Assembly (NCBI RefSeq): GCF_003611635.1
Contig: NZ_RAVZ01000030.1
Span: forward strand, 1-44,551
Direction of reading: 5' to 3'
DNA: 44,551 nucleotides
Source: Corallococcus terminator
GTDB taxonomy: Bacteria; Myxococcota; Myxococcia; Myxococcales; Myxococcaceae
Shown here: positions 5,978-14,840 of the stretch, one piece after another
How the letters are laid out: every line of letters starts with the position of its first letter
How positions within the stretch are numbered: the first letter of the stretch is position 1
Notes under the pieces: generated by a model
What the model was told of the DNA's origin: nothing
The model's input: only the letters and a program-made list of their open reading frames with translations
Databases searched by the model: none
Position numbers and translations under genes: made by a program

Positions 5978-6637
5978 CATCCGCTTCCGGTTTAGCGTCC
6001 GCTCCGGAGAGAAGCCTCGCGTTTGCGCCGTTCCCGCTCGCGGCGCTGCTGGTGTGAACGCGCCGTCACCTCGGCGATGAGCAGGATGCGCTCCTCCAAC
6101 TGCACGAGCGTCACGCCCCGGCTCCTCATCGCATGCGACAGCAGCAGGGGGGCGCAGCGAGTGAGGGCCAGCACCAGCGCGAGCCGCCCCGTTGCCTGCT
6201 CCTGGCCCGACTCGCCTGCCTTCTGCTGCAGCGACAGTTCCAGGAGGCGCGAGAGGGCCAGGGCAATCACCTTGGCGTACACCAGTGAGAGCACCGCGCC
6301 AGGCCGCGTGGCGCGCAGCGCCGTCAACCCCACGCCGGACTTGAGGGCATTGAAAAGCAGTTCCACTCTCCAGCGCAGACGGTAGGCCTCGGCCACCTCG
6401 CGTGCCGTCAGCACGTGCCGGCCCACCGTCGTCAGGTACCAGCCCAGGTCCATGAAGGTGAGCGTGCCGGGACTCAGCGCCTCCTCGGGCAGGGCGCGCG
6501 TGTCCTGGGTGCGCTGGGACGTCACGCCGTCCGCCACCGGCAACTCGTCGCGCAACGACACCAGCGCGTGCCACTTGAAGGCGGCGGGCCTCGCCTTGCT
6601 GGTGGACGGCGCCCAGTCAGCTGCCAGCCGCTGCAGC
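5978..6637. repeat. 660-bp direct repeat, copy A (IS4 fragment)
   Basis: This stretch recurs almost base for base at 8516-9174 in the same orientation. The left edge starts at CATCCGCTTCCGG and the right edge is CTGCAGC; flanks differ completely. Known differences include a one-base indel plus a GG-to-AA change near 6010 (CGGAGAG here, CGAAAG in the other copy) and a few substitutions near 6105-6130. It is the C-terminal half of an IS4 transposase gene. Confidence 0.9.
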
Positions 6638-7218: not shown

Positions 7219-7446
7219 CCACGCCTCACCACGCGCTCGGAGTGCCCTGGCGCGCGGGTCCTCGATGGAGCCTTCGTCCCGGATGGACGCACCTGTGTCC
7301 CCGGGGAACGCGGCCTCGGCGGCTCAGCAGCCCCGAGCGCGGTGAGACCCCCAGGACGCCCGCACCTCACTCGAATGAGGGCGGGCCGCTGCGTTGGCAT
7401 GACTCATGCCTTTGGCCCTTCATCCATTGCGGAAGAGGCGGCCCAC

Positions 7447-8397
7447 ATGAAGATTGCCAGCGAGTTCATTGAGGATCGGAAGAAGCTCGAAACGGGTACG
7501 ACCTTCAATGGAAAGCCGTGCAAGCCAGTCCCAGGCGCGCTCAGGGGGCATCCGGTCTTTCATGGCTATGTCCGGGCGCTCTACCACCTGCTTGCCAACA
7601 GGGACTTTCTCCTCACGGGGCTCGCGCGGCTCGAAGCGGAGCTCACGGCGTGGATCGGCGGGGGAGGCCGCGCGGCGAAAGCCATCGATTACTTCGGGCA
7701 GTGGAAAGAGCGGATCGGCGCGAAGGACGAGAGCGCCGACCCCAAGTTCAAGGGCGCCCTCTCGGGCGTCCTGGCCGCCTCACAGGCGCGCCATGGCTTC
7801 GCGGTAGAGCACCGGGTCACCATCGCGTCGACGGGAGTCGCAACGGGCGGCTTCGCGAACATCAAGGCCTTCGCGAACCTCCAGAAGACGAGCCAGCACT
7901 TCAAGGACCTCAATGCCGGGCCCGAGCACGGAGAGTTCACCCACCAGATTCAGTGGTACATCATCTCCGAGCTCTGGAACGCGGTGCAGCAGGAAGCCGA
8001 GCGGATGTTCACCTACACATACGGCTACGAATTCGGGGAGCACAAGCACTTCGCGAATGCCGGCGCGCTCATGGCGTATGTGGGGAAGACCGGCCTGTCC
8101 GCGGTGGGTATCTGGAATCTCCTGTTCGACCGGGTGAAGGACGAGACCGTCGGCGTCTACACCATCAGCAAGGACCCCGATTGCAAGTTCGATGGCCGGT
8201 GTCCGGAGGTGCTGCATCTCTCCATCTTTACGAGGACCCGGGAGTTTCCCCTCCTCGCCAACTTCTTGAAGGGGCGCTACGCCAAGCGAGAAGCGGAGAG
8301 ACAGAACGAGGCCTTCAGCTATCTCAAGCAGAAGGTGGGGAAGCCCGGCGTCCAGCCGATCAACGAACTGGGCTTCCTCGAGACGCCGAAGAAGTGA
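7447..8397 (+). CDS. Uncharacterised 316-aa protein between IS4 direct repeats
   Basis: I do not recognise a family. The chosen start is the ATG at 7447 (MKIASEFIEDRKK); the frame is open for 105 bp more upstream but that part has coding-unlike composition. There is no signal peptide or membrane segment, and the protein looks globular, soluble and cytoplasmic. Features seen: an N-terminal FNGKPCKPVPGALRGHPVFHGYVRALYHLL stretch split by a conserved-looking HPVFHGY, a central helical segment rich in Phe/Gln (HFKDLNAGPEHGEF), aromatic MFTYTYGYEF, and a Lys-rich C-terminus. It lies between two direct copies of an IS4 fragment and may be island cargo. Composition is slightly less GC-biased than in core genes further right. 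Confidence 0.7.
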   Translation: MKIASEFIEDRKKLETGTTFNGKPCKPVPGALRGHPVFHGYVRALYHLLANRDFLLTGLARLEAELTAWIGGGGRAAKAIDYFGQWKERIGAKDESADPKFKGALSGVLAASQARHGFAVEHRVTIASTGVATGGFANIKAFANLQKTSQHFKDLNAGPEHGEFTHQIQWYIISELWNAVQQEAERMFTYTYGYEFGEHKHFANAGALMAYVGKTGLSAVGIWNLLFDRVKDETVGVYTISKDPDCKFDGRCPEVLHLSIFTRTREFPLLANFLKGRYAKREAERQNEAFSYLKQKVGKPGVQPINELGFLETPKK

Positions 8398-8420: not shown

Positions 8421-9174
8421 TCAGAAGTGGGGCAGGTCTGGGAGGACGAACTCGATGGGACCGTCCACCCACGCGGCATACGCGGCCTCGTCGGCGACCC
8501 GGTAGGGTCGGCCATCATCCGCTTCCGGTTTAGCGTCCGCTCCGAAAGAAGCCTCGCGTTTGCGCCGTTCCCGCTCGCGGCGCTGCTGGTGTGAACGCGC
8601 CGTCACCTCGGCGATGAGCAGGATGCGCTCCTCCAACTGCTCGAGCGTCACGCCCCGGCTCATCATCGAATGCGACAGCAGCAGGGGGGCGCAGCGAGTG
8701 AGGGCCAGCACCAGCGCGAGCCGCCCCGTTGCCTGCTCCTGGCCCGACTCGCCTGCCTTCTGCTGCAGCGACAGTTCCAGGAGGCGCGAGAGGGCCAGGG
8801 CAATCACCTTGGCGTACACCAGCGAGAGCACCGCGCCAGGCCGCGTGGCGCGCAGCGCCGTCAACCCCACGCCGGACTTGAGGGCATTGAAAAGCAGTTC
8901 CACTCTCCAGCGCAGACGGTAGGCCTCGGCCACCTCGCGTGCCGTCAGCACGTGCCGGCCCACCGTCGTCAGGTACCAGCCCAGGTCCATGAAGGTGAGC
9001 GTGCCGGGACTCAGCGCCTCCTCGGGCAGGGCGCGCGTGTCCTGGGTGCGCTGGGACGTCACGCCGTCCGCCACCGGCAACTCGTCGCGCAACGACACCA
9101 GCGCGTGCCACTTGAAGGCGGCGGGCCTCGCCTTGCTGGTGGACGGCGCCCAGTCAGCTGCCAGCCGCTGCAGC
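8421..9174 (-). pseudogene. IS4-family transposase fragment (copy B)
   Basis: Only the C-terminal portion is present, from LQRLAADWAPSTSKARP down to KREAS. It is nearly identical to copy A, including the same internal deletion (GWYLTTVGRH), so both copies descend from one already-defective element. The upstream half, including the first catalytic Asp, is missing. Past the repeat the frame stays open and reads DDGRPYRVADEAAYAAWVDG, then ends in VLPDLPHF. This looks like the genuine C-terminus of a different gene that the fragment landed in, but I cannot name that gene. Confidence 0.82.
8516..9174. repeat. 660-bp direct repeat, copy B (IS4 fragment)
   Basis: Direct copy of 5978-6637. Together the copies enclose the TolC fragment and the 316-aa gene. 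Homologous recombination between them would delete about 2.5 kb. The right edge at CTGCAGC is followed immediately by the 45-bp palindrome-containing repeat at 9175. Confidence 0.9.
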
Positions 9175-9219: not shown

Positions 9220-9444
9220 GCCGGGCATTGAAGCACGGCGCGGTGGCGTCAGTCGGAGCTGGCCGGGAGCGTGACGGTACCGGGATTCTCGATGGCGGCA
9301 AGGGCGGCGCGCAGCAGGTAGCATCCCGGGTCTTCACCGCGCAGGCGAGCCATTTCCCCCAAGCAGGGGCGAGGCCGGAGCCGGAGGAAGAGAGCCCGTC
9401 CTTTGCCGCGACGAGGGAGGAGCCGAAGAAGGAGCGCACACCAC

Positions 9445-12747: not shown

Positions 12748-12906
12748 GTGGTGCAGCACCACGGTCTGGCCGCCGTGCTCGCTGCCGCCTACGCCCCTCA
12801 CCCCGAGCGCTTCCCGCGCGGCCCTCCCAAGCCTCACACGCTGCCGAACGCCGTCTGGATCAACGACCCCGCGCGGCTGTCCACCTCTCAGCGGACCGCG
12901 CGGTAA
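12748..12906 (+). pseudogene. IS3-family transposase OrfB C-terminal remnant
   Basis: Fifty-two codons read QHHGLAAVLAAAYAPHPERF, GPPKPHTLPNAVWINDP and stop at 12906. The block [AE]AAYxxHPERFVxGxPxPxxLPxAVWINPP is the usual extreme C-terminus of IS3-group integrases. The catalytic DDE part is gone. Bases 12555-12747 hold nothing recognisable. It abuts an IS5 remnant on the other strand. Confidence 0.75.
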
Positions 12907-12908
12907 TC

Positions 12909-13055
12909 TCACGAATGCTCTGTCTCATCCGCGTTGACAGGTTCCTCTGTCCTCGTCACGTAGAGGATGGCATTCACCACTTCAATGAGGGCCCACTGCT
13001 CGTCCGTCAGGTCGCTCGGATCCGCAGTGCGCGTGAGCATTGGGAGGTCGGGCAT
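12909..13055 (-). pseudogene. IS5-family transposase N-terminal remnant with internal deletion
   Basis: The 48-residue frame reads MPDLPMLTRTADPSDLTDEQ, WALIEVVNAILYVTRT and stops. SDLTDEQWALIE is the usual N-terminus of IS5-group transposases. In intact proteins it continues into PLLPP and a GRP segment before EVVNAILYVLRTGCQW; here WALIE is joined straight to VVNAILYV. So about 20 residues were removed in frame and the rest of the gene is lost after TRT. Confidence 0.75.
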
Positions 13056-13124
13056 CTTGTTCCTTCAACGCCCTGGCCCGCTCGCTCCATCTCAACAGGC
13101 CCTGAGGACGCAATCCGGACGCAG

Positions 13125-13153
13125 GACGACTTCGCGATCGCCTTCCTGCGTCC
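13125..13153. repeat. 29-bp shard matching the downstream lipoprotein gene
   Basis: GACGACTTCG-C-GATCGCCTTCCTGCGTCC matches 14577-14605 at 28 of 29 bases, and in the same coding frame (DDFAIAFLRP here, DDFEIAFLRP there). It appears to be a scrap of a paralogue of the lipoprotein gene. The rest of 13056-13338 shows nothing recognisable. Confidence 0.65.
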
Positions 13154-13338
13154 AGACCTGACCGACAGGGTTTCATCGTCACCCTGAGCCACCAGACTGG
13201 ATGGGTTGGGGGTTGCTTTTCCAGTGTCTTCGTCATGTTTTGATCTTCTTGCAATGTCCGGGTTGCTGCCTCAGGCTGGAAGTCCACGAACACCAGAAAT
13301 CCTGTTTTTGAAGAGGTGTTGCAGAGGGGGAGCCGTCC

Positions 13339-14124
13339 ATGCCGATGCGTCTCAACGTTGCTGCGCGGAACTTGTTTGACCTGGCCTTTCGTGGCGGTAC
13401 CAGCCTTGACCATCCGTCGTTCACGGTGGACCAGGCCCTCTCACGGGTGGACCAGATGGGGATCTTGCGAGACAACATCCGCTACTACAATGCCGATCGG
13501 CAATCCCATGCCGAGGTGGAGATCGTGGGGGGAAAGATCGTCCGCGCCAGGGATCGCCACATCTGGAGCAGCACCCGGGAACTCATCAATTACAATGGGC
13601 TCTTCGCGGTTGGAATGGACGGCCGGGTCCTCGTCACGCAGGACGAAGGGGCGAGGGGCGTGGACGCGGCCACGAGGAAGAAGCACAGCAGCATGCTGGC
13701 GGGAGGCCAGGCGCTGGCTGTCGGTTGTTTCTCGACGAACGCCCATGGATACCTGACTTCAATCGACAACAACTCCGGGCATTACGAGCCCAGTGCTCAA
13801 TCCCTGAACTGGTTCCTCGCGCAGTTGATCCAGCAAGGCCTCAACCAGATGAACCTGGCTGGGGTCCGCTACGTGTATTCGGTCCAGCGCGGTCAGCAGG
13901 CGAGTGTGGTGGTCAATCTGGTCTGGTGGAATGCCCTTCAAACAGCGATGAGGCTCAATCAGCAGGCTCAGGTGGCTACACCCCAGGGGATATTGAGCTT
14001 CAACCGGGTCGTAGGGCAGCAGGCGCTCGCCGCGCGTGTGTTCGTCGCTCAAGGTGCGGCGCCCAAGCCGGGCATGGTGGATGCCTGCTTTTTCTCATGT
14101 GGCATCGACCTGGCGAGGGAGTGA
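13339..14124 (+). CDS. IQM-domain-like protein, function unknown
   Basis: The 261-residue protein has a good ribosome site (GAGGGGG) 8 bp before the ATG. Residues 40-180 follow the pattern of the domain found in plant IQM (calmodulin-binding) proteins: GILRDNIRYY near 41, LFAVGMDGRVLV near 88, then HSSMLAGGQALAVG at 116-129 and SIDNNSGHYEPSAQSLNWFL at 141-160. The HSSxLAGG...SGHYxP pair is the hallmark I rely on. The plant IQ motif is absent. There is no signal peptide and no membrane segment. The C-terminal 80 residues are not recognised. It is 56 bp upstream of a lipoprotein gene on the same strand, so the two may be co-transcribed. The biochemical activity is unknown. Confidence 0.7.
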   Translation: MPMRLNVAARNLFDLAFRGGTSLDHPSFTVDQALSRVDQMGILRDNIRYYNADRQSHAEVEIVGGKIVRARDRHIWSSTRELINYNGLFAVGMDGRVLVTQDEGARGVDAATRKKHSSMLAGGQALAVGCFSTNAHGYLTSIDNNSGHYEPSAQSLNWFLAQLIQQGLNQMNLAGVRYVYSVQRGQQASVVVNLVWWNALQTAMRLNQQAQVATPQGILSFNRVVGQQALAARVFVAQGAAPKPGMVDACFFSCGIDLARE

Positions 14125-14180
14125 CCGCGATGGGGTTCATGCAATCCGGACGCTCAGACATTGTGAGAGGAGCAGTGGCG

Positions 14181-14840
14181 ATGAACATGTTCAGGTCGAT
14201 GTGTGTCCTTGGCGGTGGAATCCTGGTTTCGTGCGGCGCCCCGATGCAGGACGAAGAGGCGGCGGTGCTCGGCACGCGGCAGGAGGGCCTTGCCCAGGTC
14301 TTCACCCTGCAGGCGGACTTCACCGCTGCCACCGGGGCCACCCAGATTTCATTCCCCGCGAACGCGTTCGACGCGTATCCCGACCATCCCTCAGGCGCGG
14401 CGTCGAGCTGCGTCCAGACGCAGCGGGGCGTCGACCTGCCGTGGGGCTCCAATGCGCCCACCGTCAGCGTCCAGGCGCCTCGCTCCAAGACCTGGCTCTG
14501 CTTCATGGGACCCGGCTGGAACCACAACAACACCAGCCCCCTGCCCGTGAAGCCCACGCTCCTCGCCAACGGTGAGGACGACTTCGAGATCGCCTTCCTG
14601 CGTCCCGTCTCCGCCGTGGGCCTCGAACTGCTCACGAACAGCCAGGCCCTGCACAAGGTGACCCTGACCTTCACGGACGCTACTCAGGAAGTCTTCGAAG
14701 ACGCGGTTCTCGATACGGGTGCCAATGCCTTCGAGTTCGTGGGGTTCCAGTCCTCCAAGCGCATCCGGTCCATCTTCATCGACACAGCGGGTGGCGCCTC
14801 GATGAACGAGGGCATCGCCGCCATCTGGACCGCACCCTGA
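14181..14840 (+). CDS. Putative outer-surface lipoprotein
   Basis: The 219-residue product starts at the ATG at 14181, preceded by GAGAGGAG. MNMFRSMCVLGGGILVSCGA is a lipoprotein signal with lipobox LVSC; residue +2 is Gly. The mature part begins with a low-complexity linker and continues as a predicted all-beta domain containing FTAATGATQISFPANAFDAY, a Trp/Cys patch (WLCFMGPGWNHNN) and DDFEIAFLRPVSAVGLELLT. That last region resembles bacterial proteins with PEP-CTERM-like beta-sandwich domains, but I cannot assign a family. A 29-bp shard of a close paralogue lies 1.4 kb upstream. Earlier in-frame ATGs at 14130 and 14139 lack the signal. Confidence 0.78.
   Translation: MNMFRSMCVLGGGILVSCGAPMQDEEAAVLGTRQEGLAQVFTLQADFTAATGATQISFPANAFDAYPDHPSGAASSCVQTQRGVDLPWGSNAPTVSVQAPRSKTWLCFMGPGWNHNNTSPLPVKPTLLANGEDDFEIAFLRPVSAVGLELLTNSQALHKVTLTFTDATQEVFEDAVLDTGANAFEFVGFQSSKRIRSIFIDTAGGASMNEGIAAIWTAP
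14577..14605. repeat. 29-bp match to the shard at 13125
   Basis: Intact-gene partner of the fragment at 13125-13153, inside the lipoprotein coding sequence. Confidence 0.65.

What the first reader, a model, noticed from the sequence alone, without database searches (positions are those of the whole stretch)
13339..14124. Bacterial protein with an IQM-like domain
The HSSMLAGG...NNSGHYEP pattern and spacing match the core domain of plant IQM proteins, here without a calmodulin-binding motif, on an island in a bacterium. The domain has no known bacterial role. Being in the accessory region next to a lipoprotein suggests a horizontally moved effector or interaction module.
Basis: partly seen in the sequence, partly recalled or inferred. 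Interest (0 to 1): 0.7.

Follow-up and report, generated by a model that had tools for sequence, protein, structure and literature searches.

The report
Stand-alone toxin-type domain shared with plants
A soil bacterium related to Corallococcus carries, on a small foreign-looking piece of DNA, a gene for a protein domain already described at the tips of bacterial toxins and in plant IQM proteins; the domain and its proposed role are known, but we found no test of its activity.

Summary
The ORF at 13339-14124 (+) is intact and encodes 261 aa. Its HSSMLAGG...NNSGHYEP core belongs to a widespread bacterial domain: profiles built without it, one from other phyla only, find it as the only significant one of 469 window frames (E 3e-21 and 5e-16). 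Relatives form the C-terminal end of LXG proteins, a WXG-linked protein, an annexin-repeat protein and giant ORFs. This is Tox-EDA39C (Zhang et al. 2012), named after plant EDA39, which is IQM1. So the IQM link is right, but 'no known bacterial role' is wrong: it is a predicted polymorphic-toxin domain, thought to be a two-histidine RNase (H116 and H148 here). The gene lies on a 975-bp low-GC cassette, found in 2 of 96 family genomes at unrelated places. No delivery domain, recognisable immunity gene or IQ motif was found. The neighbouring lipoprotein occurs without the cassette in 6 of 15 other genus genomes and is absent where the second cassette is. Most likely it is an orphan toxin or effector module. 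RNase chemistry is inferred only; predicted folds match no solved structure convincingly. New member of a known kind, in a stand-alone, mobile setting.

The parts
13339..14124 (+). gene for the 261-aa EDA39C-domain protein (P0001)
   Evidence: 78% identical homologue in C. llansteffanensis
13468..13893 (+). EDA39C core domain (about residues 44-185)
   Evidence: family profile match 13468-13875, E 3.5e-39 (the profile includes this protein); independent profiles; confident part of the AlphaFold2 model
13684..13707 (+). first signature HSSMLAGG (H116, S117), proposed first catalytic histidine
   Evidence: H116 in 7 of 7 rows found without a motif filter and in 21 of 23 rows of A6
13768..13791 (+). 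second signature NNSGHYEP (S146, G147, H148, Y149, P151), the Sx[HS]Y motif of Tox-EDA39C
   Evidence: 7 of 7 rows found without a motif filter; 23 of 23 in A6, where most rows had been picked by this motif; motif definition in PMC3482391
13155..14129 (.). 975-bp cassette: the only DNA shared with C. llansteffanensis contig G021:C326, apart from one 34-bp match elsewhere in the window; 84.6% identical, different surroundings
   Evidence: GC 0.600 versus 0.688
13155..13338 (.). conserved 5' part of the cassette (GC 0.54), probably the gene's own leader
   Evidence: 80% identical in G021, in 2 of 96 family genomes
13110..13153 (.). left edge: 13-bp repeat of 14141-14153 followed by 31 bp of lipoprotein-gene-like sequence (96.8% to 14575-14605)
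14181..14840 (+). neighbouring lipoprotein gene, not part of the system
   Evidence: found in 6 of 15 other genus genomes (two partial), none with the cassette, and not in G021; its DNA block starts at 14139

Best explanation
The gene encodes a stand-alone protein of the Tox-EDA39C domain family, carried on a small horizontally moved cassette in Corallococcus. Shown: the gene, family membership by profile and signature, mobility by sequence comparison, and C-terminal placement of relatives in type VII-linked proteins. Inferred: it is an enzymatic toxin or effector. H116 and H148, helped by S117, S146 and Y149, would form an RNase-A-like acid-base pair that cleaves RNA without metal. It would act as an orphan effector on prey or competitors, by an unknown delivery route. 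My probabilities: domain assignment 0.95, horizontally moved cassette 0.9, toxin or effector role 0.55, RNase chemistry 0.35. The confidence below is for the toxin or effector role.
For: Independent profiles E 3.4e-21 and 4.8e-16. H116 and SGHY in 7 of 7 relatives found without a motif filter equal the published 'H, Sx[HS]Y' of Tox-EDA39C. Relatives end LXG proteins of Listeria plasmids and of viral contig L100 (LXG E 2.6e-38 and 4.9e-38), followed by similar small genes, candidate immunity genes. In Nocardia the gene follows two WXG100 genes. An annexin-repeat protein and ORFs of 2774 and 3772 aa end in the domain. Mobility: 975 bp shared without synteny, 2 of 96 family genomes, low GC; in the tree some rows pair across phyla.
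Against: No delivery domain or other usable family match in this protein (Pfam, NCBIfam, PHROGs). No recognisable immunity gene: outside the cassette the two sites share no gene. The Imm-SuFu family that the paper links to this domain is not near any EDA39C match in the 18 genomes searched: other contig, or over 2 Mb away. The core is followed by about 76 aa, so it is not at the extreme C-terminus. dN/dS 0.78 between the two copies is high, compatible with fast evolution or relaxed constraint. RNase activity was not found demonstrated in the passages read, and whether the two histidines meet in the model could not be measured.
Confidence: 0.55

Rival explanations
1. A cell-internal regulatory or defence enzyme of the host, like plant IQM proteins, not a secreted toxin.
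For: Stand-alone protein without a recognised delivery domain or immunity partner. Myxococcaceae also carry a divergent paralogue with a C-terminal zinc-ribbon-like stretch and STGY in place of SGHY, read in G000, G065 and G023 (ribbon tested for the G000 copy, E 0.00043 but below the curated cut-off), so the fold may be domesticated.
Against: Patchy occurrence (full-length in 2 of 96 family genomes), foreign base composition and unrelated genomic sites are unlike a housekeeping gene.
Confidence: 0.25
2. A decaying orphan toxin cassette, stranded after recombination and now functionless.
For: dN/dS 0.78 overall and 1.14 in the C-terminal 76 residues, with gaps there. It sits among fragments of multi-copy elements and a broken lipoprotein piece.
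Against: The frame is intact in two genomes, all signature residues are kept, and the N-terminal 40 residues have dN/dS 0.28.
Confidence: 0.15
3. One reading: an IQM-like interaction module, working with the neighbouring lipoprotein.
For: Same domain as plant IQM1/EDA39 by literature.
Against: No IQ motif. The lipoprotein occurs without the cassette in 6 of 15 other genus genomes and has no match in the genome with the second cassette.
Confidence: 0.04

Closest known systems
Tox-EDA39C polymorphic toxin domain (Zhang et al. 2012, PMC3482391)
   Same: Conserved H, then Sx[HS]Y; alpha+beta; found in several bacterial phyla and with LXG proteins.
   Different: Here stand-alone, with about 40 aa before and 76 aa after the core; no recognised delivery domain or immunity gene, no SuFu nearby.
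Plant IQM1/EDA39 (AT4G33050)
   Same: The C-terminal domain of EDA39 gives the bacterial family its name.
   Different: IQM proteins bind calmodulin through an IQ motif; none is present here. No plant sequence was compared here.
LXG type VII toxins (Listeria plasmids L011/L012, viral contig L100)
   Same: The same domain forms the C-terminal end.
   Different: They have an N-terminal LXG domain and a small downstream gene shared between the loci; the window gene has neither.

Membership tests
Tox-EDA39C domain | conserved H in the first half and Sx[HS]Y in the second half | tested here: met
   H116 and S146-G147-H148-Y149; same in 7 of 7 rows found without a motif filter; definition
Tox-EDA39C domain | sequence relatives at the end of polymorphic toxins of several phyla | tested here: met
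   LXG, WXG-linked and annexin-repeat proteins and giant ORFs; profile tests
Tox-EDA39C domain | alpha+beta fold | tested here: met
   predicted only: window core and relative L030 with pLDDT 84, pTM 0.79
Tox-EDA39C domain | RNase activity (itself only predicted in the paper) | not testable with these tools
   needs a bench assay
Polymorphic toxin system | N-terminal delivery domain with the toxin domain at the C-terminus | tested here: not met
   no Pfam or NCBIfam match; only about 40 aa precede and about 76 aa follow the core
Polymorphic toxin system | adjacent immunity gene | tested here: inconclusive
   outside the cassette the two sites share no gene and SUFU is elsewhere, but an unrecognised immunity gene is not excluded
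Plant IQM family | IQ calmodulin-binding motif | tested here: not met
   no strict IQ match by regex
Plant IQM family | shared EDA39C core domain | tested here: inconclusive
   supported by PMC3482391 text; no plant sequence was compared directly

The most novel reading that the evidence does not exclude
EDA39C is an enzyme whose fold is a strongly altered relative of the deaminase/JAB fold (that the two share a fold is recalled), with the metal-binding motifs replaced by a two-histidine site: H at the start of one helix, SGHYxP before the next. Predatory myxobacteria pass it around as an immunity-free effector cassette, and plant 'calmodulin-binding' IQM proteins carry the same, possibly active, enzyme. 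The fold part rests on sub-threshold hints only: deaminases are 17 of 34 second-look rows but with Z at most 2.8, and RadC/JAB entries recur at E 0.06 or worse; the window model instead puts phosphohistidine phosphatase first, Z 4.5.
Probability: 0.1. Interest if true: 0.75.

Novelty: new member of a known kind. Interest (0 to 1): 0.4.

Why it matters
Two abstracts in the listing call IQM a plant-specific calmodulin- or calcium-binding protein, while the toxin survey of 2012 saw the core of EDA39 as a bacterial toxin domain. No paper in the held library has both 'IQM' and 'polymorphic toxin', and one uses the name EDA39C. A small, stand-alone bacterial member makes the question 'is this domain an enzyme?' easy to test, with consequences for plant stress signalling. 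Among 23 domain pieces scanned, no Pfam model matched more than one, best E 0.0016, and NCBIfam gave no match over its cut-off for the eight family proteins tried, so the domain probably goes unannotated in many genomes.

Tried and rejected
Family libraries gave nothing usable for this protein: Pfam and NCBIfam none, PHROGs E 0.11, PADLOC E 0.044 to a NucC model, PDB sequences E 0.1. A family profile against PDB sequences hit designed repeat proteins (E down to 1e-8), lectins (0.12 and worse) and one quinoprotein entry (3); I take these as chance matches to short glycine-rich stretches.

Fold searches: window model best Foldseek E 0.1, second look best Z 4.5 to phosphohistidine phosphatase, rmsd 3.6 over 92 residues. 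Relative's core: Foldseek E 0.24, best Z 3.0 to polyphosphate kinase. I call no fold from these. RNase A is not in the lists, which excludes nothing.

Of the 7 of 96 family genomes with any match at E 0.1 or better, three (G012, G031, G089) had frames without the signature and were rejected, as was phage Phoria, L013. For the 21-row alignment I kept loci whose frames fit a motif pattern and dropped the rest of the profile hits, so its invariant columns are partly by construction; the 7-row alignment had no such filter. In one search the 'other phyla' profile wrongly held one unrelated 94-aa row and missed the Phyllobacterium row; it was rebuilt, and that value is used. The first evidence on the lipoprotein scored only 18 of several hundred candidates per genome, so I repeated it with the protein, all candidates scored. 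Imm-SuFu was sought and is not nearby. The paper's supplementary alignment was not read (no look-ups allowed).

Full report
What is there. The window lies in a 10.35-Mb genome of the same genus as Corallococcus llansteffanensis: the 16,744-bp contig G021:C326, in a genome of that genus, contains the C. llansteffanensis stretch L001. The ORF at 13339-14124 (+) reads 261 aa from ATG to stop. The quoted strings are at residues 116-123 (HSSMLAGG) and 144-151 (NNSGHYEP). No Pfam or NCBIfam family matches; PHROGs and solved structures give nothing usable. The genome has one match to this protein.

Is it more than chance? I built a profile from 21 relatives, leaving out this protein and its 78% homologue, and searched all 469 stop-to-stop frames of the window (50 aa or more) plus 1000 shuffles of the protein. 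The gene's frame scored E 3.4e-21; the best decoy 0.59. A profile of 13 relatives from other phyla and viral contigs gave 4.8e-16 against 0.23. A first version of that second profile held one wrong row and is not used. The relatives had been found starting from this protein.

Who the relatives are. With the protein alone, 7 of 96 family genomes had some match at E 0.1 or better, two of them full-length (own and G021), two weaker true relatives (G080, G058) and three without the signature. Weak tblastn hits in plasmids led to the family: a Fibrella protein and the C-terminal end of LXG proteins in Listeria. A phylum-wide profile search found 22 of 195 Myxococcota genomes at E 0.001 or better, and 42 of 195 with a larger alignment that includes some of those genomes. 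Both scored only part of the candidates in many genomes, so they are lower bounds, and I did not read every weak hit. Six weaker hits that I read carry SGHY, SGHF or STGY at the second signature. A search with one relative found six plasmid records: Nocardia, Eleftheria, Nostoc, Megaera, Phyllobacterium and again Fibrella, and none among phages. Three scans of viral contigs were answered: none, then 5 and 7 loci, together 7 distinct contigs. In seven rows found without a motif filter, H116, S117, G122, G129, G137, N144, S146, G147, H148, Y149 and P151 are invariant. In a 23-row set, mostly picked by motif, H116 aligns in 21 of 23 and SGHY in 23 of 23.

Company the domain keeps. It ends LXG proteins (LXG E 2.6e-38 in L011, 4.9e-38 in L100). 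It ends a Nocardia protein encoded right behind two WXG100 genes, a 953-aa protein with five annexin stretches and ORFs of 2774 and 3772 aa without Pfam matches. Behind the LXG genes of L011 and L100 a small gene of similar sequence follows at once, which is what a toxin-immunity pair looks like; the L011 one has no Pfam match. In a tree of 30 rows some pair across phyla: a Myxococcota row with Phyllobacterium (96/85) and one with Fibrella (87/80). Of 27 inner branches 8 are well supported and 16 are open, and the window pair sits on a long branch.

What it is. PMC3482391 (passages read) lists 'Tox-EDA39C: alpha+beta; H, Sx[HS]Y', found in many bacterial phyla, with T2, T5, T6 and T7 (LXG) export, and in plants, fungi and others. 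It is placed at the C-terminus of proteins typified by plant EDA39 and proposed to be a metal-independent RNase with two catalytic histidines like RNase A. AT4G33050 is EDA39 in PMC9795773 and IQM1 in PMC9795235 (passages read). No IQ motif is present. The statement that the domain has no known bacterial role is wrong, although the role is predicted and not shown. I did not compare a plant sequence.

How it got here. Against G021:C326, the shared DNA is 13155-14129 (977 columns, 84.6%) plus one 34-bp match at window 9355-9388; beyond the cassette no protein frame is alike. The full gene and its 5' leader are in 2 of 96 family genomes. GC is 0.600 against 0.688 for the window, with under 1% of equal slices lower. 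To the left lie short pieces repeated at many places in Corallococcus genomes (12769-12951 and 12982-13106), a 13-bp repeat of 14141-14153, and 31 bp of lipoprotein-gene sequence. To the right the lipoprotein block starts at 14139. Its protein is found in 6 of 15 other genus genomes (in G017 and G019 as partial copies), none of which has the cassette, and not in G021, which has. So the lipoprotein is a bystander.

How it may work. The AlphaFold2 model of the whole protein is weak overall (mean pLDDT 63), but from residue 51 to 180 the 10-residue blocks lie at 71-94, except 101-110 at 52. A relative's domain (G121, 162 aa) is predicted well (pLDDT 84, pTM 0.79): strand pairs, a short helix starting at the first conserved histidine, another strand pair, and SGHYxP just before the long helix. 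No solved fold matches convincingly: best Z 4.5 (phosphohistidine phosphatase, window model) and 3.0 (polyphosphate kinase, relative). Deaminases fill 17 of 34 second-look rows for the relative (Z 2.0-2.8) and 6 of 23 for the window model; RadC/JAB entries recur in the viral library at E 0.06 or worse. I treat this as a hint only. The two-histidine RNase mechanism is therefore the published inference, with the residues present here, and not something I showed.

Limits. No delivery domain and no recognisable immunity gene were found; an unrecognised one is not excluded. The SuFu family, which the paper ties to this domain in delta-proteobacteria, has matches in 14 of 18 genomes searched, but never near the EDA39C match (other contig or over 2 Mb away); in the window's genome it is on contig C222. 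dN/dS between the two copies is 0.78 overall, 0.28 in the first 40 residues and 1.14 in the last 76, from one pair only. The gene may thus be a toxin or effector, a domesticated enzyme, or a module on its way out; I put these at about 0.55, 0.25 and 0.15.

Literature coverage. 'EDA39C' or 'Tox-EDA39' occurs in 1 held paper; 'IQM' with 'polymorphic toxin' in 0; 'IQM1' with 'RNase' in 7, of which six were seen as a listing only and the seventh is PMC6008652. PMC8469326 and PMC6008652 were seen in passages; PMC10887524 gave two passages and PMC9853202 none.

Noticed in passing
G000:C63:12813-13073 (L116), also L117 (G065) and L118 (G023): A divergent paralogue in Myxococcaceae with STGY in place of SGHY and a C-terminal CxxC...CxxC zinc-ribbon-like stretch; possibly a domesticated, inactive EDA39C.
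   Followed up: partly
window 5978-6637 and 8516-9174: Two 660-bp copies, 99.1% identical; the second lies in a transposase gene (DDE_Tnp_1). Between them is a gene with DUF5636 at 7342-8394.
   Followed up: no
window 12769-12951 and 12982-13106: Short fragments repeated at many places in Corallococcus genomes; the second reads on the minus strand like the start of an IS5-type transposase (that label is recalled).
   Followed up: partly
L011:5286-5687 and L100:6260-6673: Similar small genes directly behind two LXG-EDA39C genes, a candidate immunity family; the L011 one has no Pfam match.
   Followed up: partly
G021:C578:32829-33335 (L009, L115): The C. llansteffanensis genome holds a second, quite different EDA39C gene of 220 aa.
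   Followed up: partly
BFVD entry G8DGH9: A predicted viral protein matches the relative's fold (E 1.6e-4, probability 1.0, 22% identity), perhaps a viral EDA39C domain.
   Followed up: no
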